A DNA stretch of 64,000 nt, taken from positions 124,001 to 188,000 of the forward strand of contig JAQTWT010000002.1 of the NCBI GenBank assembly GCA_028689145.1, in the 5' to 3' direction. Below are positions 32,930 through 63,438 of the stretch, one piece after another; the stretch's first letter is position 1, and each line of letters starts with the position of its first letter. The notes under the pieces are model-generated. The model was not told the origin of the DNA. It saw only the letters and a program-made list of their open reading frames with translations, and made no database searches. Origin of the DNA: Gallionella sp. (GTDB lineage: Bacteria > Pseudomonadota > Gammaproteobacteria > Burkholderiales > Gallionellaceae). Both the position numbers and the translations under genes were made by a program.

Positions 32930-34744
32930 ATGCAAACCAATTTCTCTTTTCGTTCGATCAATCTTGCCCACATCAGCCTGGCGTTCATCGGGGTTATGTG
33001 GGTTTTCCCTTTTCTGGATTTTCGTCACGCCTTTCCGGATACTACCTTCTATCAGGAATGGGAAGCAGCGTTGATTGGTTTGTGTGCAATGCCTTTATTG
33101 CTGACCAAACGCTATTGGCAACAAGTGGAGATACCGCGCATTGTGTTATTGCCCATCGGCTTGCTGCTGTTGTTGCCGGTACAGTATTTTTTGGACAAGA
33201 TAGCAAGTCTCGATCAAACGCTGTTGCTGAGTATGTATCTTTTGGGGGCGGTCCTACTCATCATATTGGGGCATCGCTTGCGTGAGGAACTGGGGTTACC
33301 TAAGTTGGCTCTGGTGTTGGCTGTATTACTTTTGCTGGGTGCTGAACTGAATGCCTTGGTTGGCATTCTGCAGCATTTTATGTGGTCCACATTCTTGGAT
33401 CGGGTTGTTTCGGTCAAAGTTTCGGCAGCGGTTATTGGCAATATTGCGCAACCAAATCAATTCGCTAACTACATAACACTGGGACTGGCATCGGTTGGCT
33501 TGTTATATGCGCGTGGCTTATTGCGCATTTGGCAGGCTGTATTGCTGGTGATGCCGTTATTGTTCGTGCTAGTGTTGAGCGGTTCCCGTGGTGCGTGGTT
33601 GTACCTGCTGTTTATGGCGGGTATGTCCTATTTATGGCAGCGCCGCGATCAATCTTTTGTGCCGTTGATGAAATATGCTGTCTGGTTGGTGCTGGGTTTT
33701 GTTTTGATGCAGTTCATTGTGCAAATTCCTTGGTTAGTGGGCACTAGTGGAAAAATCACCGCGTTTGAACGCACCTTCGGCAATGCGGGAGGTATCAGTA
33801 TTCGCATTCATTTGTGGAAAGAGGCATGGCTGATTTTCACTCATTTTCCGCTGTTGGGTGCCGGGTTTGGACAGTTTGCTTGGCAGCATTTTCAGCTGGG
33901 TGCCGAGTTGCAGAATGTACAAATCAACGGCTTGTATAATCATACGCATAATTTGGTGATGCAGTTGGCCGCTGAAACCGGATTGGCCGGTTTGTCTGTT
34001 TTGTGCGGTACGCTTGGCGTTTGGTTATGGCAAGCGTACATCGGAAGTCGTGACGTTAATCTCTGGTGGGGTTACATCGTACTGGCAGTGTTGGGTATTC
34101 ATAGTATGACTGAATACCCGTTATGGTATGTTCACTTTATCGGTATAGCGGCTGTTTTACTGGGGATGCTGGAAAGCAAGGCGTATCGATTCGAATTGCG
34201 CAATTTTCAATCAAATTTGATGAGAATGTCGGTTAGCGTGCTGTTACTGTTTGGAGTTTTTTCGCTGGTACAGCTGTACCAAGGGTACAAAATTTTGGAA
34301 GGTGGGCTGGCACTGCGTTTCTTGGCTAATAGCGATGATAGTGCCAGAACGCGCTTACGCAATAGTATGCTTGAGGTGCACGGCAACTATGCGCTATTGC
34401 GGCCTTCGGCCGAAGTGTTTTTAGCCGGAATGATCGTGCCGGATACAAATCATCTGACGGACAAGCTTGAATTAAATAGTAAGGCAATACGGTTTTTACC
34501 CACTGATGCTTTGGTTTATCGCCAGATATGGCTGCTGGCTCTGTCTGATCGCTTGCCTGAGGCAAAAATCCAATTGCATAATGCCCTGTGGGCTCATCCT
34601 AATGTATTTGTAGCAGCAAAAAACGAGTTGAACCAAGCGGCACAGCAAGATCCTGCGCATTTTGCTGAATTGTTAGAATATGCTGAGCAGAAATATGAGG
34701 AGTATCAGCAAGCATTGCTTGCTAAACAATCCAAACTGGAATAA
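32930..34744 (+). CDS. PglL/WaaL-family O-oligosaccharyltransferase or ligase
   Basis: A 604-residue polytopic protein with about twelve N-terminal hydrophobic helices and a soluble C-terminal part from about residue 440. The Wzy_C-type motif VLVLSGSRGAWLYLLFMAG and the loop ITAFERTFGNAGG...GAGFGQFAWQHF match the family; NHTHNLVMQLAAETG carries the periplasmic His residues used by PglL/WaaL ligases. NIGNIAQPNQFANY-like sequence (near 33440) is typical of pilin O-glycosylases. It would move lipid-linked glycan to protein or lipid A. No pilin gene is adjacent; target inferred only. Confidence 0.82.
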   Translation: MQTNFSFRSINLAHISLAFIGVMWVFPFLDFRHAFPDTTFYQEWEAALIGLCAMPLLLTKRYWQQVEIPRIVLLPIGLLLLLPVQYFLDKIASLDQTLLLSMYLLGAVLLIILGHRLREELGLPKLALVLAVLLLLGAELNALVGILQHFMWSTFLDRVVSVKVSAAVIGNIAQPNQFANYITLGLASVGLLYARGLLRIWQAVLLVMPLLFVLVLSGSRGAWLYLLFMAGMSYLWQRRDQSFVPLMKYAVWLVLGFVLMQFIVQIPWLVGTSGKITAFERTFGNAGGISIRIHLWKEAWLIFTHFPLLGAGFGQFAWQHFQLGAELQNVQINGLYNHTHNLVMQLAAETGLAGLSVLCGTLGVWLWQAYIGSRDVNLWWGYIVLAVLGIHSMTEYPLWYVHFIGIAAVLLGMLESKAYRFELRNFQSNLMRMSVSVLLLFGVFSLVQLYQGYKILEGGLALRFLANSDDSARTRLRNSMLEVHGNYALLRPSAEVFLAGMIVPDTNHLTDKLELNSKAIRFLPTDALVYRQIWLLALSDRLPEAKIQLHNALWAHPNVFVAAKNELNQAAQQDPAHFAELLEYAEQKYEEYQQALLAKQSKLE

Positions 34745-42382: not shown

Positions 42383-45058
42383 TCAGATTCTTGTTTGTCC
42401 GTCACACCACTTCTGCCACATGCCGCGTAGAGCGGCTTCGAAATGTTTTGCAAAACGTGGGGCATCAAAAATTGGCGAGGTCAGCACCTGTTGCCGCAAC
42501 CTGCCGCGCAAGTCTGACAGGCGTTGCAAGTCGGTAGCATGTGATACCGCGCGTGCCACGTAATCATCGTGATCAGTGGCAACCCATTCCGAAAGACCGG
42601 CATTCATCAATATGCCAACCCCTTGGCGTGACAAAAAACGTTCCCCTGTCAAAGTCAATACCGGCACTCCCATCCAAAGCCCTTCAACACTTGTGGTACC
42701 GCCGGGATAAGGGAACGGATCGAGAGCAATATCTACCCGGTGGTAAGCCTCAAAATATTTATCCCTCGACTCGGGGCCTTCCAGAATAAGCCTGTCCGCA
42801 CCGATTCCGTGGGCGGCAAAACGATCGAAAATATTGTGCTGCACCGATGCTTCATTGAGCTGTTTGGCTTTGAGGAATAAGCGGCTACCAGTAACAGATG
42901 AGAGTACTCTGGCCCATAATGCAACAACATCGTCGTTCAGCTTGGCCAGATTATTGAAACAGCCAAAAGTAATATATCCGTTCGAGATTGCCGGGAGCGG
43001 TGAAACTTTGACATCGATGTTAGGCGGGGTAAAACACAGCCGCGTTTCCGGTAATCGCCAGATTTTTTCCGTGAAATAGGCTTCTTCCGTTTCAGGTAGA
43101 GCCCAAGGATCGGCAAGAAGATAATCGATTGCCGCAACTCCCGTGGTGGCGAAATATCCCAACCAGCTTACCTGAACCGGTGCAGGCTTCCAGGCAAACA
43201 TGGGCAGGCGGTTATATTGGGTATGACCGGAAAGATCCAGCAAAATGTGTACGCCATCTGCGCGAATCAACCGGGCGGCGGCCTCATCTTCCTTGCCTAA
43301 TAAAGGCTTCCATGCGGCGAAATAAGGTTTGACTCGCGCGGTGAGTTCGTCTGTCTTGTGGTCGGTAGGATAAGCGATTAACTCAACGGCAGTCTGGTCA
43401 ATCTGACCCAGAAGGCTTTCCAGAAAATAACCTGCAGGGTGATTCCTGAAGTCACCCGATACAAATCCGATGCGCAGGCGTTTGTCCTGCTTCAAGCATG
43501 GCCAATCAGAAAATTGAGACGTTGCTTTGCGGCTTGCCATCAGGCCATATTGACGGGCTTCCGCAAGGCAATACGAAGGAGTGTGACCGGAGACGTAATT
43601 AAGTGAAAACAAAAGACTGCTATAAGCATCGGAGTAGTCCGGCTTGATCTCCAGTGCGCGTCTGAAGCTGGCTTCCGCCTCGATTAATCGCCCCAAATCC
43701 TTGCGGATAGAGCCCAGATTATTATGCGCCTCGGCATAGCGGGGATTGATTTGTATCGCCCGTTGAAAACTGTTCTCGGCCTCATCTAGCCGCCCGAGAT
43801 CATAGAGATTGATGCCCAGATTGTTATGAGCTTCAGCGTATTCCGGCTTGATCAGTAGTGCCTGTTGAAAACTGATATTAGCCTCATCCAGCTTGCCCAG
43901 ATTATTTAGGGTGAGCCCCAGGTTGTTATGCGCCTCTGCCGAATCTGGATTGATCTGCAGCGCCCTCTTGTAACAAGCTTCGGCTTCATTTAGCCGGCCA
44001 AAATCCTTGTGGATATTGCCTAAGTTGTTATGTGTCTCGGCCGAATCCGGTTTAATCTGCAGCACGCGCTGGTAACAGGCGCAAGCCTCGTCAAGTCTGC
44101 CCGAATCTTTAAGTATAAGGCCGAGATTGTTCAGTGCATCGGCATAATCCGGCTTGATCTGCAGCGCCCGCCGGTAGCTGGCCTCGGCATTGTCCGGCTG
44201 ATGAAGTTCTTTGAAAGTGACACCAAGATTAAAATGTGCCTCGGCATAATCCGGTTTAATTCGTAGCGCTTGACGGAAGCTGTTCACGGCCTCGTCCGGT
44301 TTGCCGAGCTTTTTCAGTATGGCTCCCAGATTGCAATGCACACTAGCGTCGCGCGGCGACAGTGTTGCCGCAATTTGCATGGAGGTCAGCGCGTCAGCGC
44401 TTCGTCCTATATGCATAAATGCCGCGCCCAGCACCATCCAGCCTGTCCCATACTGCGGAAAATGTTCCGTCATCGTGCGGGCAAGGTTTACTGTTTCCAT
44501 ATATCGCCCGCTGTTCAATAAGGCTAACAGCGAAGTTACCTCCTGCGGGTCCGGATTTTTTTTTGCGCAAGAGGCGTTTTTGGGAGTCTTGGATTTATTT
44601 TTGCCTGATTTTTGGATTGCAGATGAAACAAGTTGCGCGTTATTTGAGGCAAGCTGATGTACCGCGGCTGATTGTGTTTGCCCCTTAAAGCTTAAACGCG
44701 CGGCCAATGCTTCGAATGCAACACCGTTTAATCCACGTTGCCGACTTTGGGACAGCATTTGCGTTGCGCTATCGGTTTGGCCGGTCTGAATAAGCGCATC
44801 AATATAACTCAGCCAGTATTGTCCCTGATTTGGGTTGAGTTCCAGTGCCGCTTTCAGATGAGGTAGCGCGGCAGCGGGTTGTTTGACCTGCACCGCCAGA
44901 ACACCCAGATTGTGATTGGCATCCGGGTGATTCGGCTGCGCTTGAAGAATAGCGCGGTAAAATTGTTCCGCTTCTTGCAGCCGTCCAGCGTGATGATGGG
45001 CGATGGCTTGTTGCAGCGCAACATCGAGAGTCAAGGTTTGATGGGGTGTATGGTGCAT
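42383..45058 (-). CDS. TPR protein with O-GlcNAc-transferase-type (GT41) catalytic domain
   Basis: An 891-residue protein. Two TPR blocks precede the catalytic part: an N-terminal one (VALQQAIAHHHAGRLQEAEQ), a Lys-rich break near residue 165, then about ten consensus TPRs with repeated EAHNNLG and ALQIKPD motifs. The C-terminal half is SPINDLY/OGT-like: RIGFVSGDFRNHPAGYFLES, ILLDLSGHTQYNRLPMFAWK, then VQVSWLGYFATTG and FGCFNNLAKLNDDVVALWAR, which in this family carry the nucleotide-sugar site. It would glycosylate Ser/Thr of cytoplasmic proteins. ATG at 45058 is chosen; longer starts add a non-TPR extension. It is divergent from the T2SS genes. Confidence 0.92.
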   Translation of the reverse strand: MHHTPHQTLTLDVALQQAIAHHHAGRLQEAEQFYRAILQAQPNHPDANHNLGVLAVQVKQPAAALPHLKAALELNPNQGQYWLSYIDALIQTGQTDSATQMLSQSRQRGLNGVAFEALAARLSFKGQTQSAAVHQLASNNAQLVSSAIQKSGKNKSKTPKNASCAKKNPDPQEVTSLLALLNSGRYMETVNLARTMTEHFPQYGTGWMVLGAAFMHIGRSADALTSMQIAATLSPRDASVHCNLGAILKKLGKPDEAVNSFRQALRIKPDYAEAHFNLGVTFKELHQPDNAEASYRRALQIKPDYADALNNLGLILKDSGRLDEACACYQRVLQIKPDSAETHNNLGNIHKDFGRLNEAEACYKRALQINPDSAEAHNNLGLTLNNLGKLDEANISFQQALLIKPEYAEAHNNLGINLYDLGRLDEAENSFQRAIQINPRYAEAHNNLGSIRKDLGRLIEAEASFRRALEIKPDYSDAYSSLLFSLNYVSGHTPSYCLAEARQYGLMASRKATSQFSDWPCLKQDKRLRIGFVSGDFRNHPAGYFLESLLGQIDQTAVELIAYPTDHKTDELTARVKPYFAAWKPLLGKEDEAAARLIRADGVHILLDLSGHTQYNRLPMFAWKPAPVQVSWLGYFATTGVAAIDYLLADPWALPETEEAYFTEKIWRLPETRLCFTPPNIDVKVSPLPAISNGYITFGCFNNLAKLNDDVVALWARVLSSVTGSRLFLKAKQLNEASVQHNIFDRFAAHGIGADRLILEGPESRDKYFEAYHRVDIALDPFPYPGGTTSVEGLWMGVPVLTLTGERFLSRQGVGILMNAGLSEWVATDHDDYVARAVSHATDLQRLSDLRGRLRQQVLTSPIFDAPRFAKHFEAALRGMWQKWCDGQTRI

Positions 45059-45337
45059 GGTTAAAAATAAAAATGCATTCCGAGTGCAAATTATAACCAA
45101 ACGTACACTTCGAACGCGAAGGCATTTCCACGCAGGCTGTCGTGCATGGCCAAGATTTCAGTTGTGCTGTTGGAGCTTGTCGAGCGGCAAACAGGTTTTA
45201 AACGCTCTTCGGATAAACTCGGGCAAATGTTGTTAATGGAGCGAACCCGTCAATCCGCCGTACCATATAATTGACCGATGTCCCGCAAATCAGGATAATC
45301 CGCGCGATTCATCCAATTAACCCCGACTGATCAGCCC
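45059..45337. other. Divergent intergenic region between the GT41 gene and the T2SS genes
   Basis: About 280 bp with no credible gene. It must hold promoters for both directions; I could not single out clear boxes. Confidence 0.4.
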
Positions 45338-51747: not shown

Positions 51748-53169
51748 GTGCGGTTAATCCCAACTATTCTTTGCGGCGGTGCCGGATCACGGTTGTGGCC
51801 TGTCTCGCGCGAGTTGCACCCCAAGCCGTTCATCCGTTTGAGCGACGGGCAAAGTTTGTTGCAGAAGGCCTTCCTGCGCGGCGCAATGTTACCGGATGTG
51901 GAGGAAATTCTAACCGTTACCAACCGCGAACTGTTCTTCAAAACCGAAGACGAGTTTCGCGAGGTCAACGCGACAGGTATTCCCACTTCTTTCATTCTCG
52001 AACCATTCGGGCGGAATACCGCGGCAGCGATTGCCGTTGCCACCCTGCAGACCAAACAAAAGCATGGCAAAGACGCGCTCGTGCTGCTGCTTGCGGCAGA
52101 CCATTTGATCGCGGATCAGGGCGCTTTTACCCAAGCCGTTGCGCAGGCAATCAAACTGGCGCAGTCGGGCAAACTGGTCACTTTCGGCATTCAGCCGGAA
52201 GCGCCCGAAACCGGCTATGGATACATCGAAGCCGAAGGCAGCGACGTGCTGCGTTTTGTCGAAAAACCCAGCCTTGAGAAAGCGCAGGCCTACCTCGCCT
52301 CCGGCCGTTACCTGTGGAATTCGGGCATGTTCTGTTTTACTGCCGGTGTCATGCTGCAAGAGATGGAGCGGCACTGTCCGGAAATTCTGGCCGCCTCGCG
52401 CGTCTGCATGGCGCAATCCCGCAAGGCCGAGGGCGACGGTTTTGCGCAGGTTGATCTTCATCCTGAAAGCTTCGATCAGATACCCGACAATTCGATTGAT
52501 TACGCCGTGATGGAAAAATCCGCCAATGTGGCGGTGGTGCCGTGCAGCATCGGCTGGAGCGATATCGGGTCGTGGAGCGCCTTGGGCGATCTTACCGCTG
52601 CGGACGAAAAGGGCAACCGCGTTGAAGGCGAAGCGCTGTTGCACGATGTCAGCAATTGTTACATCCAGAGCAACGAACGGATCGTGGGCGCGCTGGGTGT
52701 CGATAATCTGATCATCATCGACACGCCCGATGCAATCCTGATCGCGGATCGCAACCGGGTGCAGGATGTCAAATTGCTCTATGCCAGCCTCAAGGCTGAC
52801 GGGCATGAGGCGCACAAGCTGCATCGCACCGTCCATCGTCCCTGGGGTACCTATACCGTTCTGGAAGAAAGCGCGCGCTTCAAAATCAAGCGGATCGAAG
52901 TCAAACCGGCCGGTAAACTCAGTCTGCAAATGCATCATCACCGCAGCGAGCATTGGATTGTGGTGAGTGGCATGGCGAAGGTAACCAATGGCGATAGCGA
53001 GACGCTGGTTAATACCAATGAATCCACTTATATCCCGGCCGGCCACATGCACCGTCTGGAAAACGTGGGGGTTGTCGATCTGGTCATGATCGAAGTGCAA
53101 AGCGGCGAATATCTCGGCGAAGACGACATTGTCCGGTTTGATGACAAATACGGGCGCACGCCCCAGTGA
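51748..53169 (+). CDS. manC: Mannose-1-phosphate guanylyltransferase / mannose-6-phosphate isomerase
   Basis: A 473-residue bifunctional enzyme making GDP-mannose. It starts at GTG 51748 after GAGGA. The nucleotidyltransferase motif is GGAGSRLWPVSRELHPKPF; the zinc/isomerase motif is FVEKPSLEKAQAYL with a C-terminal cupin domain (PWGTYTVLEESARFKIKR ... LQMHHHRSEHWIVVSG). GDP-mannose feeds the gmd and rmd products encoded downstream. Homologues are ManC, CpsB and WbpW. First gene of the export locus. Confidence 0.95.
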   Translation: MRLIPTILCGGAGSRLWPVSRELHPKPFIRLSDGQSLLQKAFLRGAMLPDVEEILTVTNRELFFKTEDEFREVNATGIPTSFILEPFGRNTAAAIAVATLQTKQKHGKDALVLLLAADHLIADQGAFTQAVAQAIKLAQSGKLVTFGIQPEAPETGYGYIEAEGSDVLRFVEKPSLEKAQAYLASGRYLWNSGMFCFTAGVMLQEMERHCPEILAASRVCMAQSRKAEGDGFAQVDLHPESFDQIPDNSIDYAVMEKSANVAVVPCSIGWSDIGSWSALGDLTAADEKGNRVEGEALLHDVSNCYIQSNERIVGALGVDNLIIIDTPDAILIADRNRVQDVKLLYASLKADGHEAHKLHRTVHRPWGTYTVLEESARFKIKRIEVKPAGKLSLQMHHHRSEHWIVVSGMAKVTNGDSETLVNTNESTYIPAGHMHRLENVGVVDLVMIEVQSGEYLGEDDIVRFDDKYGRTPQ

Positions 53170-53225: not shown

Positions 53226-54023
53226 GTGCGGAATATGCTAAAGTCTTTGTGGATGTATCGCGGCTTCATTTTAGGTAACGTGCAGCGCGAGTTCCAGTCT
53301 AAATACCGCAATTCGTTGCTGGGTGCAGCGTGGACGGTGTTTAACCCGCTGGCCATGATCGTCGTGTATACCCTGATCTTCACCAAGGTCATGCATGCCA
53401 AGCTGCAGCCGGGTATTGACAATGAGTTTGCCTATAGTATTTATCTGTGTGCCGGCGTGCTTGCCTGGGGGCTGTTCGCCGAAATTGTCGGACGCTCGCA
53501 GAATACCTTTCTTGAGCATGCCAATTTACTCAAAAAGCTCAGCTTTCCCCGGCTGTGTCTGCCGGTCACCGTGGTGGCCAATGCACTGTTGAATTTTGCC
53601 ATTGTGTTCGGTTTGTTCAGCGCATTTCTGTTGATTACCGGTAATTTCCCAGGGGTGGTTTATGTGGCATTGCTGCCCGCATTGGCAATCATGGTTGCTT
53701 TTGCGGTTGGCCTGGGCATCAGCCTGGGTGTGCTTAATGTGTTCTTTCGCGATATTGGCCAATTCTTCGCTATTTTTATCCAGTTCTGGTTCTGGTTAAC
53801 CCCGATTGTTTACCCGATCAGCATCTTGCCCGAACCGCTACGCCCGTTGATGGGTTATAACCCCATGGCTAATTTGATCGGCGCATTTCAGGATATTCTT
53901 GTGGCACGCCAATGGCCCGCATGGCAGGGATTGTTGCCGGTAGCCCTTCTCGCCGTTGCCATGTGTGCTTTGGCTCTGTACCTGTTTCGCACGCATGCGG
54001 GCGAAATGGTGGATGAGTTGTGA
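53226..54023 (+). CDS. wzm: ABC-2 polysaccharide export permease (Wzm)
   Basis: A 265-residue permease with six helices. The N-terminal cytoplasmic amphipathic stretch (MYRGFILGNVQREFQSKYRN) and the motif LGAAWTVFNPLAMIVVY are typical of Wzm/KpsM-type O-antigen exporters. GTG at 53226 is preferred for its GGGGG-rich site; ATG at 53235 is also possible. It pairs with the Wzt gene 57 bp downstream. Confidence 0.92.
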   Translation: MRNMLKSLWMYRGFILGNVQREFQSKYRNSLLGAAWTVFNPLAMIVVYTLIFTKVMHAKLQPGIDNEFAYSIYLCAGVLAWGLFAEIVGRSQNTFLEHANLLKKLSFPRLCLPVTVVANALLNFAIVFGLFSAFLLITGNFPGVVYVALLPALAIMVAFAVGLGISLGVLNVFFRDIGQFFAIFIQFWFWLTPIVYPISILPEPLRPLMGYNPMANLIGAFQDILVARQWPAWQGLLPVALLAVAMCALALYLFRTHAGEMVDEL

Positions 54024-54080: not shown

Positions 54081-55304
54081 ATGGGCACTATTACCATCAC
54101 TAATTTAGGCAAGGCCTATAAACAATATCCCACCCGCTGGTCACGCCTGACGGAATGGCTGGTGCCGTTTGGCAAACCCCGCCATCAACTAAAATGGGTG
54201 TTGCAGGACATAAACTTCAGCGTCAGTCCGGGCGAGGCGGTGGGTATCATCGGTATCAACGGCGCGGGTAAAAGCACGCTGCTAAAAATGATTACCGGCA
54301 CCACGCAGCCGACGACCGGCAGCGTGCATATCACCGGGCGTGTGGCGGCGATGCTTGAGCTTGGTATGGGCTTTCATCCGGATTTTACCGGCAGGCAAAA
54401 TGCCGTGATGGCCGGGCAGCTATTGGGGATGAGCGTCGAGGAAATTGCCGGCCTCATGCCCGAAATCGAAGCCTTTGCCGAAATCGGGGATTACATGGAT
54501 CAGCCGGTGCGCGTGTATTCCAGCGGCATGCAAATGCGCGTGGCATTTAGCGTGGCAACGGCGCGCAGGCCGGATGTGCTGATTGTCGACGAGGCTTTAT
54601 CGGTGGGCGACGCTTACTTCCAGCACAAAAGTTTTGACCGTATCCGCGAATTCCGCAAACAGGGCACTACCTTGCTGATCGTTTCGCACGACAAAGGCGC
54701 TATTCAATCCATCTGCGACCGGGCCATCATGCTGGATGGCGGCAGGCTGGGCAAACTGGGCGAGCCGGAAGCGGTGATGGATTATTACAATGCGATGATT
54801 GCGCAAAAAGAGAACTCCAAGATTGAACAAGTTGTGCTGGATACCGGCAAGGTGCAAACCACTTCCGGTACAGGCGAGGCGGAAATTGAGTCGGCTGTTC
54901 TCCTGAATAGTGAAGGCAAGCCGGTTGAGGTGATTAATGTGGGGGAGCGCATCACTCTGGCAGTCACCGCGCGCGCAAAAGTGGCTATTCCCGAGTTGGT
55001 GTTGGGCTATCTGATTAAAGACCGGCTCGGGCAACCGATTTTTGGCACCAATACGCACCACTTGGGGCAAGCGTTAAAGCAAGTCGAAGCCGGCGAGCGT
55101 GTAAAATACCGGTTTTCTTTTCCGGCCAATATGGGAGAGGGTTCTTACTCGGTTACGCTCGCGCTGCATGCCACGGACTCGCACCTTGCGGCCAATTATT
55201 TTTGGAAAGACAGAATGATACTTTTTAACATTGTGAATATTAATCGTCTGCACTTTATCGGTGTTGCGTGGCTGGCACCCGAGTGGGAATCGAATCGTGG
55301 CTGA
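54081..55304 (+). CDS. wzt: ABC polysaccharide export ATPase (Wzt) with C-terminal carbohydrate-binding domain
   Basis: A 407-residue ATPase. Walker A is GINGAGKSTLLKMI, signature YSSGMQMRVAFSVA, Walker B VLIVDEALSVGD. After about residue 250 comes an extra beta-sandwich domain (IESAVLLNSEGKPVEVINVG ... YLIKDRLGQPIFGTNTHHLG), the Wzt_C type that recognises the terminal modification of the finished glycan in E. coli O8/O9a. This implies a chain-capping step. ATG at 54081 is used. The stop overlaps the giant gene start by 8 bp. Confidence 0.94.
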   Translation: MGTITITNLGKAYKQYPTRWSRLTEWLVPFGKPRHQLKWVLQDINFSVSPGEAVGIIGINGAGKSTLLKMITGTTQPTTGSVHITGRVAAMLELGMGFHPDFTGRQNAVMAGQLLGMSVEEIAGLMPEIEAFAEIGDYMDQPVRVYSSGMQMRVAFSVATARRPDVLIVDEALSVGDAYFQHKSFDRIREFRKQGTTLLIVSHDKGAIQSICDRAIMLDGGRLGKLGEPEAVMDYYNAMIAQKENSKIEQVVLDTGKVQTTSGTGEAEIESAVLLNSEGKPVEVINVGERITLAVTARAKVAIPELVLGYLIKDRLGQPIFGTNTHHLGQALKQVEAGERVKYRFSFPANMGEGSYSVTLALHATDSHLAANYFWKDRMILFNIVNINRLHFIGVAWLAPEWESNRG

Positions 55305-58300
55305 TCCGAATTTTTACCGGGCTTTTCAGGACCGTTACCGCGGCTCAAGAGAGCTGACCAAATCACGGCTGTCGGTTTATCTGCCGTTTATTCTGCCGCT
55401 GCAACAACTGTTCGGGGTTTGCCATTCAACCGATCTGGGCTGCGGGCAGGGAGAATGGCTGGAGCTGATGCGGGACAATGGGCTGGATGTCCAGGGGGTC
55501 GATTTTGACCCGGTGATGCTCGAAGCGGCACGCGCGCGCGGCTTGGATGTTCGCTACGGCGATGCCATTCAATATTTGCAAGCGCTGCCGGCGGGAAGCC
55601 AAATGCTGGTCACGGCCTTTCATGTGGCCGAACATCTGCCATTCGACGTGCTGCAATCCCTGGTGGCGGAAGCGTTGCGCGTGTTAAAACCGGGTGGATT
55701 GTTGATTCTCGAAACCCCCAACCCGGAAAATATTGTGGTGGGTACCGCAAATTTTTACATGGACCCGACCCATCAGCGGCCCATTCCATCGCTGCTGTTA
55801 TCCTATTTGGCGGAGTATTGCGGATTCGAGAGGATAAAAACGCTCAGGTTGCAGGAAACCGTCGGGCCTTCCGAGTTGGGCGACCTGAACTTGCTGAATG
55901 TATTTAATGGTGTGAGTTACGATTATGCCATCGCCGCACAAAAGGGCGGGGATACGGAAGCGCTGGCTGCGACAGCCGGTGCATTTGATTTGAATTACGG
56001 CCTCTCGCTGGATAATCTGGCCACTTTTTATGATCGGCAGATCAAATCCACCATACAACAGGCCGATGCGCACGCACAGCAGGCCGGTGCGCACGCGCAG
56101 CATGCCGGTGCGCAAGCCCAGCAGGCTGGTGCGCAAGCCCAGCAGGCCGAGGCGCAAGCCCGGCAGGCCGAGGCGCAAGCCCAGCAGGCCGAGGCGGAAG
56201 CCCGGCGCGCCATGAACAAAGTTGACGAACTCGGTGAATCCTACCGGCTATGGCAGGCTGAAGCCGACAGGGTTAATCGTGAACTGCAAAACGTGTATGC
56301 AAGCCGATCCTGGCGAATCACTGCGCCGATAAGACAAGCTATGCGTCCATGCAAGTTGGTTGTGCGAAAAACCCGCTCTATTATTGCAAACACAAAAAAC
56401 CTATCCCAAAAAACGCTTAGGAACAGGTTGTTGCGTGTGTTGTGGAATTTGAGAGCCTTGCCTGTCGTTAAATCATTTGAAAGATATTGTGCAATGCACT
56501 GCCCTGCAGTGAATGCACATTTGCGTAAATTCGTTCGTGTGTATTTATATGGTCAGCTGCACAAAGTACCCGTATTTAAATCAGCGTATTGTCAGCCACT
56601 GCCTTCACAGGAATTTGCATACCCCGATATCGGCGGGAGCGTGTTGCACCATTGGCTGCCCGCGGGAAAAAGAATAATTTACTACTATGTCGATCACACG
56701 ATCGGTTGCCCGGTCAACACGGGGATGCAGCGTGTCGTGCGCGGGTTATCCCGCGCACTGTTGGGCGGCGGAGAACAACTCTGCTTTGTTAAATGGAACT
56801 TTGAATACCGTCAATTGGTTCTGGTGAACCGCGATGAGCTTGCCTATTTGGCCCGCTGGCATGGGCCGGAAATTAAGGCTGAAGAAGTAGCCCGGTATCC
56901 GGAAGCCGGGTCGCCTGAAGTGTCGATTTCTAATCATCCCGCAGGAGAAGCCAATTGGTTGGTGATACCTGAAGTGACATATATCAATAATCATCCGTCA
57001 AGCGTCACGCTGGATATCATCATGGCGGCAAAACGGCACGGGCTGAAATCGGCGTTTGTGTTCTACGATGCAACTCCGTTGCGGCGCAAGGAATTGGCCG
57101 ATGTCGCGCCGATGCACGAAGCATATATGCAGCAACTGCTGCTGGCTGATTTGATTGCGCCCATATCGGAGTGGTCGGCCTCCGATTTGGCGGGCTTTTT
57201 CACTCACCACCAACTGGCTTCGTCGAGCACCCTGCCCAAAATTGTGCCCATTCCATTAACGGGTGAATCGCAGCTTTCACCGAGGGTTATGGCAGCGGGT
57301 CAGGCGACGCGCAAATTAATTCTTTCAGTTGGTTCGATTACGTCGCATAAAAATCAGTTGTCTCTGGTGAAAGCCTTTATTGCCTTTACTGTCCGCAATC
57401 CCGGTTGTGGTTGGGAATTGACGTTGGTTGGCAATATTCATCCCGATATCGCTTGCGAGCTGTTGGCTTTAATGTCGCACACACCGGCGATTAGTGTGCT
57501 GGATAACTTGCCGGACGAGGAGCTTGAACGGCTATTAAATCAGTGTGCATTTACAGTATTTCCCTCGGTGATGGAGGGCTTCGGTTTGCCTATACTGGAA
57601 AGCCTGTGGCACGGCAAGCCTTGTATTTGCGCCAATTTTGGCGCGATGTCCGAGGTCGCCGCGGGCGGCGGGTGTCTGATGGTGGATGTTCGCAGCAGCG
57701 ATACTATTGCGCTGGCCATTGAGCGGTTAATCTTTGAACCTGAAACCCTCGCGCGCTTGCAAGCCGAGGCGGTAGCTCGCCCGCTAACCGTTTGGCAGGA
57801 TTACGCGGATGATTTTTGCGGGGCATTAAATCAGGTTTCCGATCCGTTGCATAACATGGGGACAGTCTATTATCTTGTGGATCATACCTGTGCCTATCAC
57901 GCAAATAGCGGCATTCAGCGTGTCGTGAGAGGGATGGCGCGCGCATTGATCGAGTCGGGAGTCAGTCTTGTCCCGGTTAAGTGGGATCGGGCGGCACAAG
58001 ATTTGATCCGGCCCAGCGGGGAAGAACTCGTCAATATGTCGCGTTGGAATGGCCCGCCGGTTAACGGTTGGGCTCCCTGGCAAACGCCGGAAAAGGCTTC
58101 CTTGTCAGACTGGCTATTTATACCGGAGTTGCTGTCGGATCCGGCCGGGCTAAGCAATACCGCGATAAAACGCTATGCGGCAGAACGCCGTTTGCGTACG
58201 GTGGGCATATTTTATGATGCCATTCCCTGGAAGATGACAAACCTCTACACATCAGGCGAGTCTGAGAGACATGGCGAGTATATGCGCGGTCTCAATGAAT

Positions 58301-60123
58301 TTGAATTGGTTTTATCGATCTCCGAATTTAGCCGGAATGATTTGGTGCGATTCCTGCGAAGTGTCAGCGATAGAACACCGAATCTTGAGGACAGGGTGCG
58401 TGCCTGCGTGTTGCCCGGCGAGTTCAGGGAAAGCGAACGGATATTGCAAATACGCCCGGCTCGGGAGGATTCGCCAACACGCATTCTGTGCGTGTGTACT
58501 ATCGAACCCAGAAAGAACCATTTCGTGTTGTTGGAAGCATACAAACAACTGGCGGACAAGTGCGATAAACAGGTTGAACTATGTCTGGTTGGAGGCTCGC
58601 CTTTCCCCGAATTGGCTGCGCAAGTGCAGCACTATATTGACACGGTGCCGGGCATTCGCTGGGAGCGCCATGCCGATGATACGCGGCTGAGAGAGTTGTA
58701 TGACGAGTGCGATTTCACCGTCTATCCTTCTCTGGAAGAGGGATTCGGGTTGCCGATTCTGGAAAGTATTTGGCACGCGCGTCCTTGTATTTGCCGCGAC
58801 TCGGGAGCTATGGCGGAGGTTGCCGAAGGCGGTGGCTGCCTGATGGTTGAAACGGCCAATGCCGATATTCTTGCCGCCGCAATGATGCAACTGACTATTG
58901 ATACCGGTTTGCGCCAGCGCCTTGCGCTGGAAGCGGTAGAGCGTCCCATCAGAACCTGGAGCGATTACGCGCGCGATGCGGTTTTGATGATGGCAAACGA
59001 ACGGCAATTGCCGGTTGCGCAAAAACTGCCGCCGGTGCAGCCGGTTACGCTGTTCAGGCAGGAGGCAATCAATTTGTCAGCGCAGCCGCTGCTGTCGATA
59101 TGTATTTCAACGTATAACCGCGCAGCCTGGCTGGGTCTTAGTTTGCAAAATCTGGAACGGCTGATTCCGGTCGCGCTGGACGAGGTTGAAATAGTGGTGT
59201 GCGACAATACTTCCACCGACAATACCCCGGAAGTCGTGAAGCCCTATATGGGACGAAGCGATTTCAGGTATTACCGCAATCCGGCCAACGTCGGGATGCT
59301 GGGTAATTTGCAAGTTACCGCCCATCATGCCCGCGGTCGCCATGTGTGGATACTGGGCGACGACGATTTGCTAAAACCGGGCAGTATTGAACGGATCTTG
59401 CAGGTATTGCGCACGCAGCCCGACCTTGCGCTGGTCTATCTCAATTACGCCTATACCCGCGAGGACGATGCGGCGGCGGTAAAAGATCTGGATAAATTCC
59501 TGCTGCAAAGCACGCCTGTCGTTGCACCCGGACAGGATATTTTTGCGCCTGTCTGGCGTATCAGCACCGAATCCGAGAATTTTTTTACCGCAATTTATTG
59601 CGTGGTTTTCCGGCGCGACCACGCGCTGCATGCCTATTCCCAAAATACCGACGGCAGGCCGTTTTCGACTATGCTGACTTGCATTCCGACGACGAATCAT
59701 GTGCTGCATCACATGATGGATGAGCCGGCCTGCTGGATCGGTGAGCCGCAGCTGGTGGTCAATATGAATGTTTCATGGCTAAAATACGCATCGATCTGGA
59801 TTTTGGAGCGGTTGCCGGAGGCATTTGATCTTACCGAGAAGATGGGGGCCGATCAGGCTGCACTGGACGCATGCCGTATCAGGCATTTGCCGCATGTCCG
59901 GCACTGGTTTAACGAGATTTACCAGAATGACACGGAATCGAATATTGATTACTTTTCTCCCGTCAGACTGGTGTCGAGATTTAAACACCTTAAAGAATTC
60001 AGGAGCGATATGCAGTATTTGAGGTCTGTCTACGAGGCGGCTCGCTCGCGTGGAGCAAAGGGAACCGATGCGCCAACCGCGGAAGTTTTCCCGACATTTC
60101 AAAATACCCAGGAGTTATCTTGA
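55297..60123 (+). CDS. Giant fused methyltransferase / coiled coil / GT4-GT4-GT2 glycan enzyme
   Basis: About 1,608 residues. Order: SAM methyltransferase (about residues 35-235; DLGCGQGEWLELMRDNGLDV, VAEHLPFDVLQSLVAEALRV); an Ala/Gln heptad array (255-303) leading into a helix ending SRSWRITAPIRQ; GT4 module 1 (about 445-850; YYYVDHTIGCPVNTGMQRVV, catalytic EX7E in MEGFGLPILESLWHG); GT4 module 2 (about 855-1230; YLVDHTCAYHANSGIQRVVR, EEGFGLPILESIWHA); GT2 module (about 1260-1600; LSICISTYNRAAWLGLSLQN, DDD in WILGDDDLLKPG). The two GT4 modules are clearly duplicated. Start: GTG 55297, overlapping wzt by 8 bp; GTG 55261 is an in-frame alternative. A WbdD/WbdA-like polymerase-terminator merger is inferred from architecture and locus. 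Confidence 0.9.
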   Translation: MADPNFYRAFQDRYRGSRELTKSRLSVYLPFILPLQQLFGVCHSTDLGCGQGEWLELMRDNGLDVQGVDFDPVMLEAARARGLDVRYGDAIQYLQALPAGSQMLVTAFHVAEHLPFDVLQSLVAEALRVLKPGGLLILETPNPENIVVGTANFYMDPTHQRPIPSLLLSYLAEYCGFERIKTLRLQETVGPSELGDLNLLNVFNGVSYDYAIAAQKGGDTEALAATAGAFDLNYGLSLDNLATFYDRQIKSTIQQADAHAQQAGAHAQHAGAQAQQAGAQAQQAEAQARQAEAQAQQAEAEARRAMNKVDELGESYRLWQAEADRVNRELQNVYASRSWRITAPIRQAMRPCKLVVRKTRSIIANTKNLSQKTLRNRLLRVLWNLRALPVVKSFERYCAMHCPAVNAHLRKFVRVYLYGQLHKVPVFKSAYCQPLPSQEFAYPDIGGSVLHHWLPAGKRIIYYYVDHTIGCPVNTGMQRVVRGLSRALLGGGEQLCFVKWNFEYRQLVLVNRDELAYLARWHGPEIKAEEVARYPEAGSPEVSISNHPAGEANWLVIPEVTYINNHPSSVTLDIIMAAKRHGLKSAFVFYDATPLRRKELADVAPMHEAYMQQLLLADLIAPISEWSASDLAGFFTHHQLASSSTLPKIVPIPLTGESQLSPRVMAAGQATRKLILSVGSITSHKNQLSLVKAFIAFTVRNPGCGWELTLVGNIHPDIACELLALMSHTPAISVLDNLPDEELERLLNQCAFTVFPSVMEGFGLPILESLWHGKPCICANFGAMSEVAAGGGCLMVDVRSSDTIALAIERLIFEPETLARLQAEAVARPLTVWQDYADDFCGALNQVSDPLHNMGTVYYLVDHTCAYHANSGIQRVVRGMARALIESGVSLVPVKWDRAAQDLIRPSGEELVNMSRWNGPPVNGWAPWQTPEKASLSDWLFIPELLSDPAGLSNTAIKRYAAERRLRTVGIFYDAIPWKMTNLYTSGESERHGEYMRGLNEFELVLSISEFSRNDLVRFLRSVSDRTPNLEDRVRACVLPGEFRESERILQIRPAREDSPTRILCVCTIEPRKNHFVLLEAYKQLADKCDKQVELCLVGGSPFPELAAQVQHYIDTVPGIRWERHADDTRLRELYDECDFTVYPSLEEGFGLPILESIWHARPCICRDSGAMAEVAEGGGCLMVETANADILAAAMMQLTIDTGLRQRLALEAVERPIRTWSDYARDAVLMMANERQLPVAQKLPPVQPVTLFRQEAINLSAQPLLSICISTYNRAAWLGLSLQNLERLIPVALDEVEIVVCDNTSTDNTPEVVKPYMGRSDFRYYRNPANVGMLGNLQVTAHHARGRHVWILGDDDLLKPGSIERILQVLRTQPDLALVYLNYAYTREDDAAAVKDLDKFLLQSTPVVAPGQDIFAPVWRISTESENFFTAIYCVVFRRDHALHAYSQNTDGRPFSTMLTCIPTTNHVLHHMMDEPACWIGEPQLVVNMNVSWLKYASIWILERLPEAFDLTEKMGADQAALDACRIRHLPHVRHWFNEIYQNDTESNIDYFSPVRLVSRFKHLKEFRSDMQYLRSVYEAARSRGAKGTDAPTAEVFPTFQNTQELS
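56059..56205 (+). repeat. Seven tandem 21-bp units coding an exact heptad array
   Basis: Seven in-frame 21-bp units with consensus CAGGCCGAGGCGCAAGCCCA and G, each coding Q-A-x-A-x-A-Q/R. Unit 1 is QADAHAQ, unit 4 QAGAQAQ, unit 7 QAEAEAR. Later units are nearly identical in DNA (units 5 and 6 differ at one base), so the array has probably expanded recently. The unit length equals one helical heptad. Confidence 0.95.
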
Positions 60124-61358
60124 ACAACTATCATCAAATTGATGCTTGCCGGATCAGCAAGAGTAAAAATCTTGTTTCCGTACTCAATCTCGGTTTTCAG
60201 GCGTTGACCGGGGTGTTCCCCAAAACAGCCGATCAACAAGTCACGGTCGGTCCGCTGGAGTTGGTATGGTGCCCCGACAGCGGGCTGTTGCAGCTCAGGC
60301 ATTCTTACGAGCCCTCGGAAATGTACGGCGACAATTATGGTTACCGTTCCGGACTGAATCAGTCAATGGTCAGCCATTTGACGGATAAGGTTGCTTATCT
60401 TGAACGGCTTGTTCCGCTGAAAGCGGGCGATGTTGTCGTTGATATCGGCAGCAACGACTGCACAACGCTGAAAGCATACCAATCCAGAGATATCCGCCGC
60501 ATTGGTATCGATCCAACCGGCAACAAGTTTCTGCAATATTATCCGGCGGAAGTTACGCTGGTGCCGGATTTCTTTTCTGCCGATGCATACCATTCGGTTG
60601 AATCGCGCCCCGCGCGCATTGTCAGTTCGATCGCGATGTTTTACGACCTTGAGTCGCCGGTTGATTTTGCGCGGCAGATTGAGTCCATCCTTGCCGATGA
60701 CGGGGTGTGGCACTTTGAACAAAGTTACATGCCCTCGATGCTGCGCACCAATTCTTACGACACCATCTGTCACGAGCATTTGGAATACTATTCGCTGGGG
60801 GCGGTGAAAACAATTTTGGAGCGCGCCAACTTGCGTCTGGTTGACGTGACAATGAACGCGGTGAACGGGGGGAGCTTCGCGGTAACTGCCGCGAAAGCAT
60901 CGAATCAATCCATTCATTCAAATCAGGCGGTGATTGACTGGCTGCTCGAGCAGGAACAGCGCATGGGGCTGAATACCCCCAAGCCTTACCGCGACTTTGA
61001 AGAGCGAGTGTTCCGCCATCGCGACGACTTGACCCGTTTGATCCGTTCATTGAATGCGGACGGCAAGAAAATACTGGGTTATGGCGCTTCGACCAAAGGT
61101 AATGTGTTGCTGCAATTTTGCGGCCTGACTGCGGCGGATATTCCGGCGATTGCCGAGGTGAATCCGGAAAAGTACGGATGCGTTACCCCGGGTAGTCATA
61201 TCCCGATCGTGTCCGAGGCCGATGCCAAAGCGATGCAGCCGGACTACTTTCTGGTGTTGCCGTGGCACTTTAAGGATGGCATTGTCCGGCGTGAAAAAGA
61301 ATATCTTGCGTCGGGCGGAAAGTTTATTTTTCCTTTCCCTGAAATTGAGATTATTTGA
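60120..61358 (+). CDS. SAM-dependent methyltransferase of the sugar C-methyltransferase type
   Basis: A 412-residue enzyme with three parts: an N-terminal zinc-site-like segment (about residues 1-65), a class I SAM domain (about 85-260; VVVDIGSNDCTTLKAYQ, HFEQSYMPSMLRTNSYDTIC, HEHLEYYSLGAVKTILE) and a C-terminal domain (about 300-412; KKILGYGASTKGNVLLQFCG). This is the Methyltransf_13/14 layout of NovU/TylC-type deoxysugar C-methyltransferases. The N-terminal segment has one Cys in each half (ACRISK, VWCPDS) where relatives use CxxC pairs, so the zinc site may be lost. Start TTG 60120 has AGGAG before it and overlaps the giant gene end. Confidence 0.85.
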   Translation: MNNYHQIDACRISKSKNLVSVLNLGFQALTGVFPKTADQQVTVGPLELVWCPDSGLLQLRHSYEPSEMYGDNYGYRSGLNQSMVSHLTDKVAYLERLVPLKAGDVVVDIGSNDCTTLKAYQSRDIRRIGIDPTGNKFLQYYPAEVTLVPDFFSADAYHSVESRPARIVSSIAMFYDLESPVDFARQIESILADDGVWHFEQSYMPSMLRTNSYDTICHEHLEYYSLGAVKTILERANLRLVDVTMNAVNGGSFAVTAAKASNQSIHSNQAVIDWLLEQEQRMGLNTPKPYRDFEERVFRHRDDLTRLIRSLNADGKKILGYGASTKGNVLLQFCGLTAADIPAIAEVNPEKYGCVTPGSHIPIVSEADAKAMQPDYFLVLPWHFKDGIVRREKEYLASGGKFIFPFPEIEII

Positions 61359-61489: not shown

Positions 61490-62583
<1,094 letters not shown>

Positions 62584-62584
<1 letters not shown>

Positions 62585-63438
62585 TGCCAAAATTGCTGCT
62601 AACGGGAGCGGTAGGATTTACCGGCCAGCACTTTACCGCGGCCGCCCTGCAAGCCGGTTACGAGGTGCTGCCGTTATTGGCCGATCTGACCGATGCGCAG
62701 GCCGTGGCAACCGAGGTTGCGGCAGCCGCGCCGGATTATGTGGTGCACCTTGCCGCCATTAGCTCAATCACGCATTCGGATGAAGAAGCGTTCTATCGTG
62801 TCAATTTGTTCGGGACGCAGAATCTGCTCAAGGCACTGGCGGCATTGCGCAATCCTCCCCGGCGAGTTTTGCTGGTAAGCAGTTCAAATGTTTACGGCAA
62901 TGTGCTCGTATCGCCGATTGATGAAACCACTTGCCCTTTACCGGTCAACCATTATGCGATAAGTAAATTTGCGATGGAACGGCTGGCCGACATGTTTGCC
63001 GACCGTCTTGCATTGGTGATAGTCAGGCCGTTTAATTACACCGGCGTGGGGCATGACGCACGCTTTGTGATTCCAAAGCTGATTGATCATTTCAGCCGGC
63101 GCAGTGCATCGGTCGAGCTGGGTAATCTGGACGTGGAACGCGAGTTTAATGATGTGCGCACGGTGTGCGAAGCTTACCTGCGCCTGTTGCAACTGGGGCA
63201 GAACGGTCAAATATACAACGTATGCTCGGGGCGGCCGGTAAGCCTGAACTCGGTGATTGATATCTTGAAACGCATTACCGGTCATGCTTTGCAAATCAGC
63301 GTGCATCCCGATTTTGTCCGTACCAACGAGGTGCATCGCCTGTGCGGCAGCACCGCCAAGCTGGAGGCATGCATCGGCCCGTTGCAACACCCCCCGCTGG
63401 AAGACACCTTGCGCTGGATGTTGTCTGCAAGCGCGTGA
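62584..63438 (+). CDS. rmd: GDP-6-deoxy-D-mannose reductase (GDP-D-rhamnose synthase)
   Basis: A 284-residue SDR. The Rossmann motif is LLTGAVGFTGQHFTAAALQA, and the catalytic Tyr/Lys lie in VNHYAISKFAMERLADMF. The C-terminal pattern NVCSGRPVSLNSVIDILKRI with VHPDFVRTNE is typical of RMD proteins, which reduce the Gmd product to GDP-D-rhamnose. An alternative role in making a different 6-deoxyhexose cannot be excluded. It overlaps gmd by one base, so the two are translated together. Confidence 0.82.

What the first reader, a model, noticed from the sequence alone, without database searches (positions are those of the whole stretch)
55297..60123. One-chain polymerase, ruler and terminator for an exported polysaccharide
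Seen: methyltransferase, heptad helix array, two duplicated GT4 modules with intact EX7E motifs, and a GT2 module in one frame directly after wzt. Known: in E. coli O8/O9a systems WbdD (methyltransferase/kinase with a coiled-coil ruler) caps chains made by WbdA (dual GT4), and Wzt's C-terminal domain reads the cap. Inferred: here ruler, cap enzyme and polymerase are fused, which would fix their stoichiometry. A kinase domain of WbdD type is not seen. This is the best candidate for an undescribed system here.
Basis: partly seen in the sequence, partly recalled or inferred. Interest (0 to 1): 0.85.

Follow-up and report, generated by a model that had tools for sequence, protein, structure and literature searches.

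The report
One-protein sugar-chain builder, ruler and capper
A single bacterial protein appears to build a surface sugar chain, measure it with a built-in rod and cap it for export; the principle is known, but this combination of parts looks new, and in many related proteins the rod carries short in-frame DNA repeats.

Summary
One open frame (55297-60123, 1608 aa, overlapping the wzt stop) encodes a methyltransferase, an Ala-rich heptad helix made of 21-bp DNA repeats, an SWRITAPIR anchor motif, two related GT4 modules with EX7E, and a GT2 module. Residues 5-346 are homologous to E. coli O8 WbdD (42%, E 3e-81), the methyl-only terminator, not to the kinase-bearing O9 type. The adjacent Wzt is 64.5% identical to O8 Wzt. 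Best reading: an O8-type WbdD fused to its polymerase; chains grow on GT4-GT4-GT2, reach the methyltransferase across the rod, are O-methylated and exported. One-chain terminator-ruler-polymerases are published (K. pneumoniae O12 WbbB, O7 ORF6), so this is a new variant. Elsewhere the same polymerase stands alone or carries an FkbM methyltransferase. Of 90 such proteins, 32 have DNA tandem arrays in the ruler, 28 with periods that are multiples of 21 bp; two plasmid records carry an O8 wbdD with an exact duplication of the ruler. Activity, cap chemistry and chain length are untested.

The parts
51748..53169 (+). ManC-type mannose-1-phosphate guanylyltransferase / mannose-6-phosphate isomerase (GDP-mannose supply)
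   Evidence: NCBIfam TIGR01479, 587.6 bits, over its cut-off
53226..54023 (+). Wzm, ABC-2 permease of the exporter
   Evidence: Pfam PF01061
54081..55304 (+). Wzt, ABC ATPase with C-terminal cap-reading domain
   Evidence: Pfam ABC_tran and Wzt_C; full-length match to a solved Wzt, 8dku, E 2e-83; 64.5% identical to E. coli O8 Wzt over 403 aa
55297..60123 (+). the one-chain protein, 1608 aa, GTG start overlapping the wzt stop
55297..56031 (+). residues 1-245: O8-WbdD-type methyltransferase (terminator)
56032..56307 (+). residues 246-337: predicted coiled-coil ruler, about 92 residues (about 137 angstrom if one helix, by inference)
   Evidence: AlphaFold2 helix 238-334; heptad register
56059..56203 (+). 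21-bp tandem array, 6.9 copies, one heptad per unit, inside the ruler
   Evidence: TRF; unit letters
56305..56454 (+). residues 337-386: SWRITAPIR motif and long helix, candidate membrane anchor as in WbdD
   Evidence: motif shared with O8 and O9 WbdD; AlphaFold2 helix, block pLDDT 57-72
56455..56661 (+). residues 387-455: linker; no match to the C-terminal tail motif of standalone WbdD-type proteins
   Evidence: PSSM scan, -0.1 bits; two short helices, then pLDDT under 50 from 420 on
56662..57846 (+). GT4 module A (residues 456-850), EX7E at 57574-57600
   Evidence: Pfam and NCBIfam, motif
57877..58971 (+). GT4 module B (residues 861-1225), EX7E at 58738-58764
   Evidence: Pfam, motif
59062..60066 (+). 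GT2 module (residues 1256-1590), DDD at 59359-59367
   Evidence: Pfam PF00535, motif
60120..61358 (+). sugar C-methyltransferase of the 3-C-methyltransferase family
   Evidence: Pfam PF08421 and PF08484; 4rv9 D-mycarose 3-C-methyltransferase E 1e-64
61526..62584 (+). GDP-mannose 4,6-dehydratase (Gmd)
   Evidence: TIGR01472 over its cut-off
62587..63438 (+). Rmd-like reductase, probably giving GDP-D-rhamnose
   Evidence: PDB matches 6x3b GDP-6-deoxy-D-mannose reductase 1e-37 and 2pk3 GDP-6-deoxy-D-lyxo-4-hexulose reductase 9e-34; the best match is 4lw8 'putative epimerase' 5e-77; none of the NCBIfam models listed is over its cut-off

Best explanation
The protein is an O8-type WbdD terminator fused to its polymerase. 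The anchor helix after the rod holds it at the inner face of the cytoplasmic membrane. The C-terminal GT4-GT4-GT2 modules extend an undecaprenol-linked chain, probably rich in D-rhamnose from ManC-Gmd-Rmd and perhaps with a 3-C-methyl sugar. The N-terminal methyltransferase sits about 14 nm away at the end of a coiled-coil rod. When the chain is long enough to reach it, its non-reducing end is O-methylated (position 3 by analogy); this stops growth and makes the chain a substrate for the cap-reading domain of Wzt. Shown here: domain order, homology to O8 WbdD and O8 Wzt, repeat structure, predicted rod, gene neighbourhood. Inferred: membrane contact, oligomer, sugar identities, capping, chain-length control, export.
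For: O8 WbdD homology through the ruler and anchor, 42% over 343 columns; hhalign probability 100 to O8 WbdD over 249 columns, 91.8 to O9 WbdD over 120. Wzt 64.5% identical to O8 Wzt over 403 aa, without the insertions of O9 Wzt; it also matches over full length the solved transporter 8dku, whose family reads a 3-O-methyl mannose or rhamnose cap (PMC9445017, passages). Predicted rod and heptad register. A wzt lies within 1.5 kb upstream of the methyltransferase in 59 of 80 related loci, with a median gap of 9 bp. The same GT4-GT4-GT2 polymerase is fused to an FkbM methyltransferase through another coiled coil in G203 and stands alone in G022 and G873: the cap-ruler part is a plug-in. Published one-chain precedents.
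Against: No activity, glycan or length data exist. The polymerase is not an orthologue of O8 WbdA (best local match 21% over 248 columns of one GT4 module), so polymerisation is assumed. AlphaFold2 favours long helices in Ala/Gln-rich repeats (general knowledge), only a monomer was modelled, confidence falls to 60 at the end of the rod, and the anchor has block pLDDT 57-72. The ruler could be merely a spacer. In 21 of 80 related loci no wzt lies within 1.5 kb upstream. The standalone sister L022 also lacks the tail motif, so its absence cannot be tied to the fusion.
Confidence: 0.78

Rival explanations
1. The methyltransferase decorates sugars inside the chain (or a side branch) and does not end it; the helix is only a spacer or oligomerisation stalk, and length is set elsewhere.
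For: The catalytic target cannot be read from sequence. A sugar C-methyltransferase lies next door, so methylated sugars may be part of the product anyway. For WsaE, methylation in vitro did not depend on chain length (PMC2943079 passages).
Against: Close homology to O8 WbdD, placement after a Wzt with an O8-like cap-reading domain, and a predicted rod after the methyltransferase.
Confidence: 0.12
2. The GT modules build the adaptor or side branches and another protein is the polymerase.
For: Three GT modules of two families could make a short fixed oligosaccharide; the donors are unknown; the rest of the genome was not scanned for glycosyltransferases.
Against: None of the six neighbouring genes scanned is a glycosyltransferase; the GT4-GT4-GT2 block travels with the C-methyltransferase, Gmd and Rmd in G203 and G873; multi-GT proteins of this kind of locus are polymerases in the characterised cases (PMC11231755).
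Confidence: 0.12
3. The Ala/Gln repeat is a flexible, freely varying linker with no measuring role; tandem repeats only reflect replication slippage.
For: Arrays have come and gone often (19 changes on the tree); some relatives have almost no ruler (25 residues in L019 and L020, a 37-residue tail in L048, L060 and L072); the plasmid duplication adds 52 residues, not a whole number of heptads.
Against: Of 32 ruler arrays 28 have periods that are multiples of 21 bp, where 1 in 7 would be expected among multiples of 3 (P 4e-20); a free linker would have no reason to keep heptad units. E. coli O8 and O9 wbdD show one length each in the full-length rows listed.
Confidence: 0.15

Closest known systems
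E. coli O8 WbdD (IAI1, P0002, 425 aa)
   Same: Methyltransferase, coiled coil and SWRIT.P(I/L)R anchor align over 343 columns at 42%; gene directly after wzt; methyl-only terminator (activity taken from PMC11231755 and a passage of PMC3482155)
   Different: O8 WbdD is a separate protein with a C-terminal tail; the polymerase is encoded separately (1213 aa); its ruler is about 64 aa against about 92 here (positions) and TRF finds no tandem array in the gene
K. pneumoniae O12 WbbB (PMC11231755, sections 2 and 13 in part)
   Same: Terminator, coiled-coil ruler and polymerase in one chain, polymerase modules at the C-terminus
   Different: The terminator adds Kdo and is a glycosyltransferase, not a methyltransferase; the three modules belong to GT99, GT102 and GT103 (that GT99 is the terminator is recalled), not GT4-GT4-GT2
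K. pneumoniae O7 ORF6 (PMC11231755, section 10 and section 11 in part)
   Same: Methyltransferase, coiled coil and C-terminal GT modules in one chain; CgnL (7pd7) is the closest fold of its methyltransferase and ranks second here
   Different: It has a kinase domain and a CBM and ends chains with methyl phosphate; it has two GT2 modules and a separate ribofuranosyltransferase
Geobacillus WsaE (PMC2943079 passages)
   Same: Methyltransferase plus two GT modules in one chain, encoded after wzm-wzt with overlapping genes; role in the 2-O-methyl cap
   Different: No ruler is stated in the passages read; two GT modules; S-layer glycan of a Gram-positive; sequence not compared here
E. coli O9/O9a WbdD (HS, P0003, 708 aa)
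   Same: Ruler principle, SWRMT anchor motif, place after wzt
   Different: Kinase domain, methyl phosphate cap; the methyltransferase is similar only around the SAM motif

Membership tests
WbdD, O8 type (methyl-only terminator) | methyltransferase homologous to O8 WbdD | tested here: met
   BLASTP E 3e-81, 42% over 343 columns; hhalign probability 100
WbdD, O8 type (methyl-only terminator) | coiled coil between catalytic head and anchor motif | tested here: met
   by prediction only: helix 238-334, heptad register
WbdD, O8 type (methyl-only terminator) | gene next to a wzt with a C-terminal cap-reading domain | tested here: met
   8-base overlap; Wzt_C; 64.5% to O8 Wzt
WbdD, O8 type (methyl-only terminator) | separate polypeptide with a C-terminal tail | tested here: not met
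   fused to GT modules; tail motif absent, -0.1 bits, against 28.1 in O8 WbdD; 23 of 79 standalone relatives lack the motif too
WbdD, O8 type (methyl-only terminator) | terminal O-methylation that sets chain length | not testable with these tools
   needs enzyme assay and glycan analysis
WbdD, O9a type (methyltransferase-kinase) | kinase domain between methyltransferase and coiled coil | tested here: not met
   no kinase among the Pfam families listed; six residues between the last helix before the rod and the rod
one-chain terminator-ruler-polymerase (WbbB type) | terminator, ruler and GT modules in one polypeptide in that order | tested here: met
   (functions inferred)
one-chain terminator-ruler-polymerase (WbbB type) | glycosyltransferase (Kdo) terminator with GT99, GT102 and GT103 modules | tested here: not met
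   the head is a methyltransferase and the GT modules are GT4, GT4 and GT2 by Pfam; the three GT families were not searched as such
WsaE | sequence relation to WsaE | not tested
   WsaE sequence not fetched; only the domain layout is compared, from PMC2943079 passages

The most novel reading that the evidence does not exclude
The glycan ruler is an evolvable dial. In the WbdD-O8 family the coiled coil is repeatedly rebuilt by in-frame DNA tandem duplications, mostly of one or two heptads, so O-antigen length changes in steps without touching the enzymes. The window's protein combines such a repeat-built ruler with a covalently attached polymerase, and the cap enzyme at its tip can be exchanged (WbdD type here, FkbM type in G203). 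A plasmid O8 wbdD allele that differs from another plasmid allele by nothing but an exact ruler-spanning duplication is a natural snapshot of such a step.
Probability: 0.5. Interest if true: 0.75.

Novelty: new variant of a known kind. Interest (0 to 1): 0.58.

Why it matters
It joins a methyl-only WbdD to a GT4-GT4-GT2 polymerase in one chain, which would give one ruler per polymerase and a simple system for testing the ruler model in vitro with a single protein. The comparison shows that cap enzyme, ruler and polymerase are exchanged and fused in different ways, and that many rulers carry DNA repeats of a whole number of heptads. That makes the question of how bacteria evolve the length of surface polysaccharides testable with natural alleles.

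Tried and rejected
Kinase-bearing WbdD: rejected (no domain, no room). WbdA orthology of the polymerase: weak, 21% over 248 columns of one GT4 module. Loss of the tail motif because of the fusion: not upheld, because the closest standalone protein, L022, lacks it as well. Strain-level copy-number variation of the window's own 21-bp array could not be tested: within the own family one search gave, in the own genus, only a polymerase relative (G022), and a class-level draw of 321 genomes with a Pseudomonas protein gave matches in 4, the own included, none closer than 59%. The E. coli O9 gene gave a control, not variation. A plasmid relative in Pseudosulfitobacter lies beside type I secretion genes, not wzt, and was left. 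WbdD itself is not among the 50 fold rows shown; that is inconclusive. Literature: searches listed no paper whose title or printed abstract speaks of tandem-repeat variation of the ruler or of a ruler-duplicated O8 wbdD; the library is partial, and the 2015 papers on the O9a ruler (Hagelueken) and on WbdA-WbdD interaction (Liston, DOI recalled) are not held. The second structure job was not used: no close polymerase relatives that the rule allows were at hand for an alignment.
Full report

What it is. Residues 5-346 align with WbdD of E. coli O8 (strain IAI1, the 425-aa methyltransferase gene after wzt) at 42% identity over 343 columns, E 3e-81, through the ruler and the SRSWRIT.P(I/L)R motif. 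Against WbdD of E. coli O9 (strain HS, 708 aa) only the SAM-binding stretch is similar (E 0.001). Profile comparison gives probability 100 for O8 over 249 columns and 91.8 for O9 over 120. The strain serotypes O8 and O9 are recalled; the annotated wzt names (O8 family, O9 family) agree. The window's Wzt is 64.5% identical to O8 Wzt over 403 aa and 46.7% to O9 Wzt, and it lacks the insertions of the latter. It also matches the solved transporter 8dku over its full length (E 2e-83). The paper on the Aquifex aeolicus transporter reports an O antigen of D-rhamnose and D-mannose capped by 3-O-methyl sugar, and calls the cap analogous to E. coli O8 and Campylobacter fetus B (PMC9445017, passages); that 8dku belongs to this work is inferred, because 8dl0, which has the same sequence, occurs in its text. 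So cap enzyme and cap reader are both of the methyl-only kind.

Likely product. ManC and Gmd are confirmed by NCBIfam models. The gene at 62587 matches GDP-6-deoxy-mannose reductases (6x3b 1e-37, 2pk3 9e-34), although its best PDB match is a 'putative epimerase' (4lw8, 5e-77). The gene at 60120 is a sugar 3-C-methyltransferase relative (4rv9, 1e-64). GDP-D-rhamnose, possibly with a 3-C-methyl sugar, is the likely donor set; this is inference. Whether the chain goes to LPS or to protein is open: the genome has three places matching PF04932 (Wzy_C), one of them in the window, and two matching PF00953.

Relatives of the whole protein. In draws of 158, 399 and 398 genomes (family, order, phylum; the draws overlap), 4, 8 and 6 genomes match at the limits used (1e-50, 1e-60, 1e-60), the own genome included. 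The GT4-GT4-GT2 block, at 40-49% identity, occurs in three others. In G022 it is a separate 1150-aa protein close to a contig end. In G873 it is a separate protein of about 1150 aa; the match is marked with one TAA, whereas the frame listed is open. In G203 it is fused, in a 1648-aa frame, to an FkbM-type methyltransferase (PF05050, 5e-27) through another predicted coiled coil that has its own 117-bp duplication, followed by SFRLTLPLR. In G203 and G873 the block lies with the C-methyltransferase, Gmd and Rmd; in G022 with the C-methyltransferase. So the polymerase cassette is kept and the cap-ruler part is replaceable. Among the matches reported in these draws no other genome has the WbdD-type methyltransferase fused to this polymerase.

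Relatives of the terminator. In 59 of 80 a wzt on the same strand lies within 1.5 kb upstream, with a median gap of 9 bp, and in 57 the Wzt match reaches the C-terminal domain. In 21 it does not: two loci begin too close to the gene, 11 have a wzt elsewhere in the locus, and 8 show none at this threshold. The methyltransferase protein is fused to a GT in at least 3 of 80: L052, L056 and L058, the only frames over 800 aa, shown by Pfam. The 77 shorter frames were judged with the window's GT modules alone, and none matched; L023 and L026 run off their contigs. On a tree of 90 methyltransferase domains six fused proteins need six changes, with four rows of unclear ends set aside. The window's nearest row is L022, a standalone protein (99/90), then L023 (100/99), whose end is not seen. 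Most inner branches are weak (25 of 87 starred) and the bootstrap had not settled. On this tree fusion has arisen several times, and in the window's line after the split from L022.

The ruler as repeat DNA. TRF on 90 proteins (89 WbdD-type including the window, plus G203; three duplicate contigs dropped) finds ruler arrays in 32. The best array has a period that is a multiple of 21 bp in 28 of 32 (21 bp in 17, 42 bp in 8, and 63, 84 and 105 bp in one each); the other four are 33, 66, 66 and 117 bp. Two proteins have arrays outside the ruler. With 1 in 7 expected among multiples of three, the chance of 28 or more is 4e-20; related rows are not independent, so this is a guide. Selection for coiled-coil register is the simple explanation. 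58 of 90 show no ruler array. The presence of an array changes at least 19 times on the tree. Units differ between close relatives: one 21-bp unit in the window, 42 bp in L022, other 21-bp units in L023 and L008. Two P. alkylphenolica records differ by 7 residues in ruler length (308 and 301). Where the anchor pattern was recognised, ruler length runs from 25 to 317 residues.

Control and natural variant. E. coli wbdD shows one length per serotype in the rows listed: all 48 full-length O9 rows are 2127 bp (60 rows listed of 263 records), and all 59 full-length O8 rows are 1278 bp (60 of 303); in a third search all 60 rows listed of 302 have a single ruler copy. TRF finds no array in the O8 gene and one weak 15-bp array (score 50) behind the anchor in the O9 gene. 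In the plasmid collection 6 records hold O8 wbdD, one of them a 4.8-Mb record. Four have the 1278-bp gene. Two (NZ_CP026400.1, E. coli; NZ_CP020505.1, Serratia marcescens; both IncX5, same protein accession WP_064179390.1, identical gene) have 1434 bp. The difference is an exact 156-bp tandem duplication, both copies identical, covering most of the ruler and lengthening it from about 64 to 116 residues. The Enterobacter kobei plasmid allele equals the long allele minus one copy, letter for letter. Wzm and Wzt beside it have the same protein accessions as in IAI1. It is probably one event, and 52 residues are not a whole number of heptads, which does not fit the register rule. Its effect on chain length is not known.

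Tail motif. 56 of 79 standalone proteins end in a motif of the form L(S/T)PRAR.IY.DLK..I; 23 do not. O8 and O9 WbdD, not used in training, score 28.1 and 13.7 bits against a shuffled 99th percentile of 5.6. Of seven fused proteins only L052 has it. The C-terminal region of WbdD recruits the polymerase (PMC3482155 passage; PMC11231755 section 2), so a docking role is a reasonable guess. L022, the closest standalone relative, lacks it as well, so the absence cannot be credited to the fusion.

What is known. PMC11231755 (abstract; section 10; first parts of sections 2, 11 and 13) describes one-chain systems: O12 WbbB with a Kdo terminator, and O7 ORF6 with methyltransferase-kinase, coiled coil and two GT2 modules. 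It also notes that some orthologues end after the coiled coil while others carry GT modules. PMC2943079 (passages) describes WsaE. PMC5082667 (passages) reports that insertions and truncations in the O9a ruler lengthen and shorten chains. PMC13168486 (passages) suggests a methyltransferase-coiled coil ruler for E. coli O101/O162. The window's protein is therefore a new variant of a known kind: a methyl-only, O8-type head on a GT4-GT4-GT2 polymerase. The least expected result here is how the rulers vary in nature.

Noticed in passing
L120:2831-4264 and L121:3001-4434 (NZ_CP026400.1, NZ_CP020505.1): Plasmid-borne O8 wbdD with an exact 156-bp tandem duplication covering most of the ruler; four other records of the plasmid collection have the single-copy gene.
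   Followed up: partly
L110:5553-10547 (G203): FkbM-type methyltransferase fused by a predicted coiled coil (117-bp duplication) to the same GT4-GT4-GT2 polymerase: a different cap enzyme on the same machine.
   Followed up: partly
C-termini of standalone WbdD-type proteins, for example L044, L046, L100, and O8/O9 WbdD: Conserved C-terminal motif L(S/T)PRAR.IY.DLK in 56 of 79 standalone proteins, a candidate polymerase-docking tail.
   Followed up: partly
L112:8638-9516 (G117): A contig ends inside a ruler made of identical 21-bp units (as L008), so such rulers may be cut or collapsed in draft genomes.
   Followed up: no
window 32930-34744: 604-aa multi-spanning protein with a PF04932 (Wzy_C) match: O-antigen ligase or protein O-oligosaccharyltransferase type, a candidate acceptor-side enzyme.
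   Followed up: no
window 42383-45100: 905-aa TPR protein whose C-terminal half looks, by eye, like a SPINDLY/OGT-type glycosyltransferase (recalled, not searched).
   Followed up: no
window 56308-56661: The stretch between ruler and GT4 module A has lower GC3 (0.47) than the flanking parts (0.58-0.65), possibly a trace of the fusion.
   Followed up: no
G000:C18:28027-39574: A second glycan locus with a PF00953 transferase, a GT2, a C-methyltransferase relative that runs off the fetched locus, and a Wzy_C protein.
   Followed up: no
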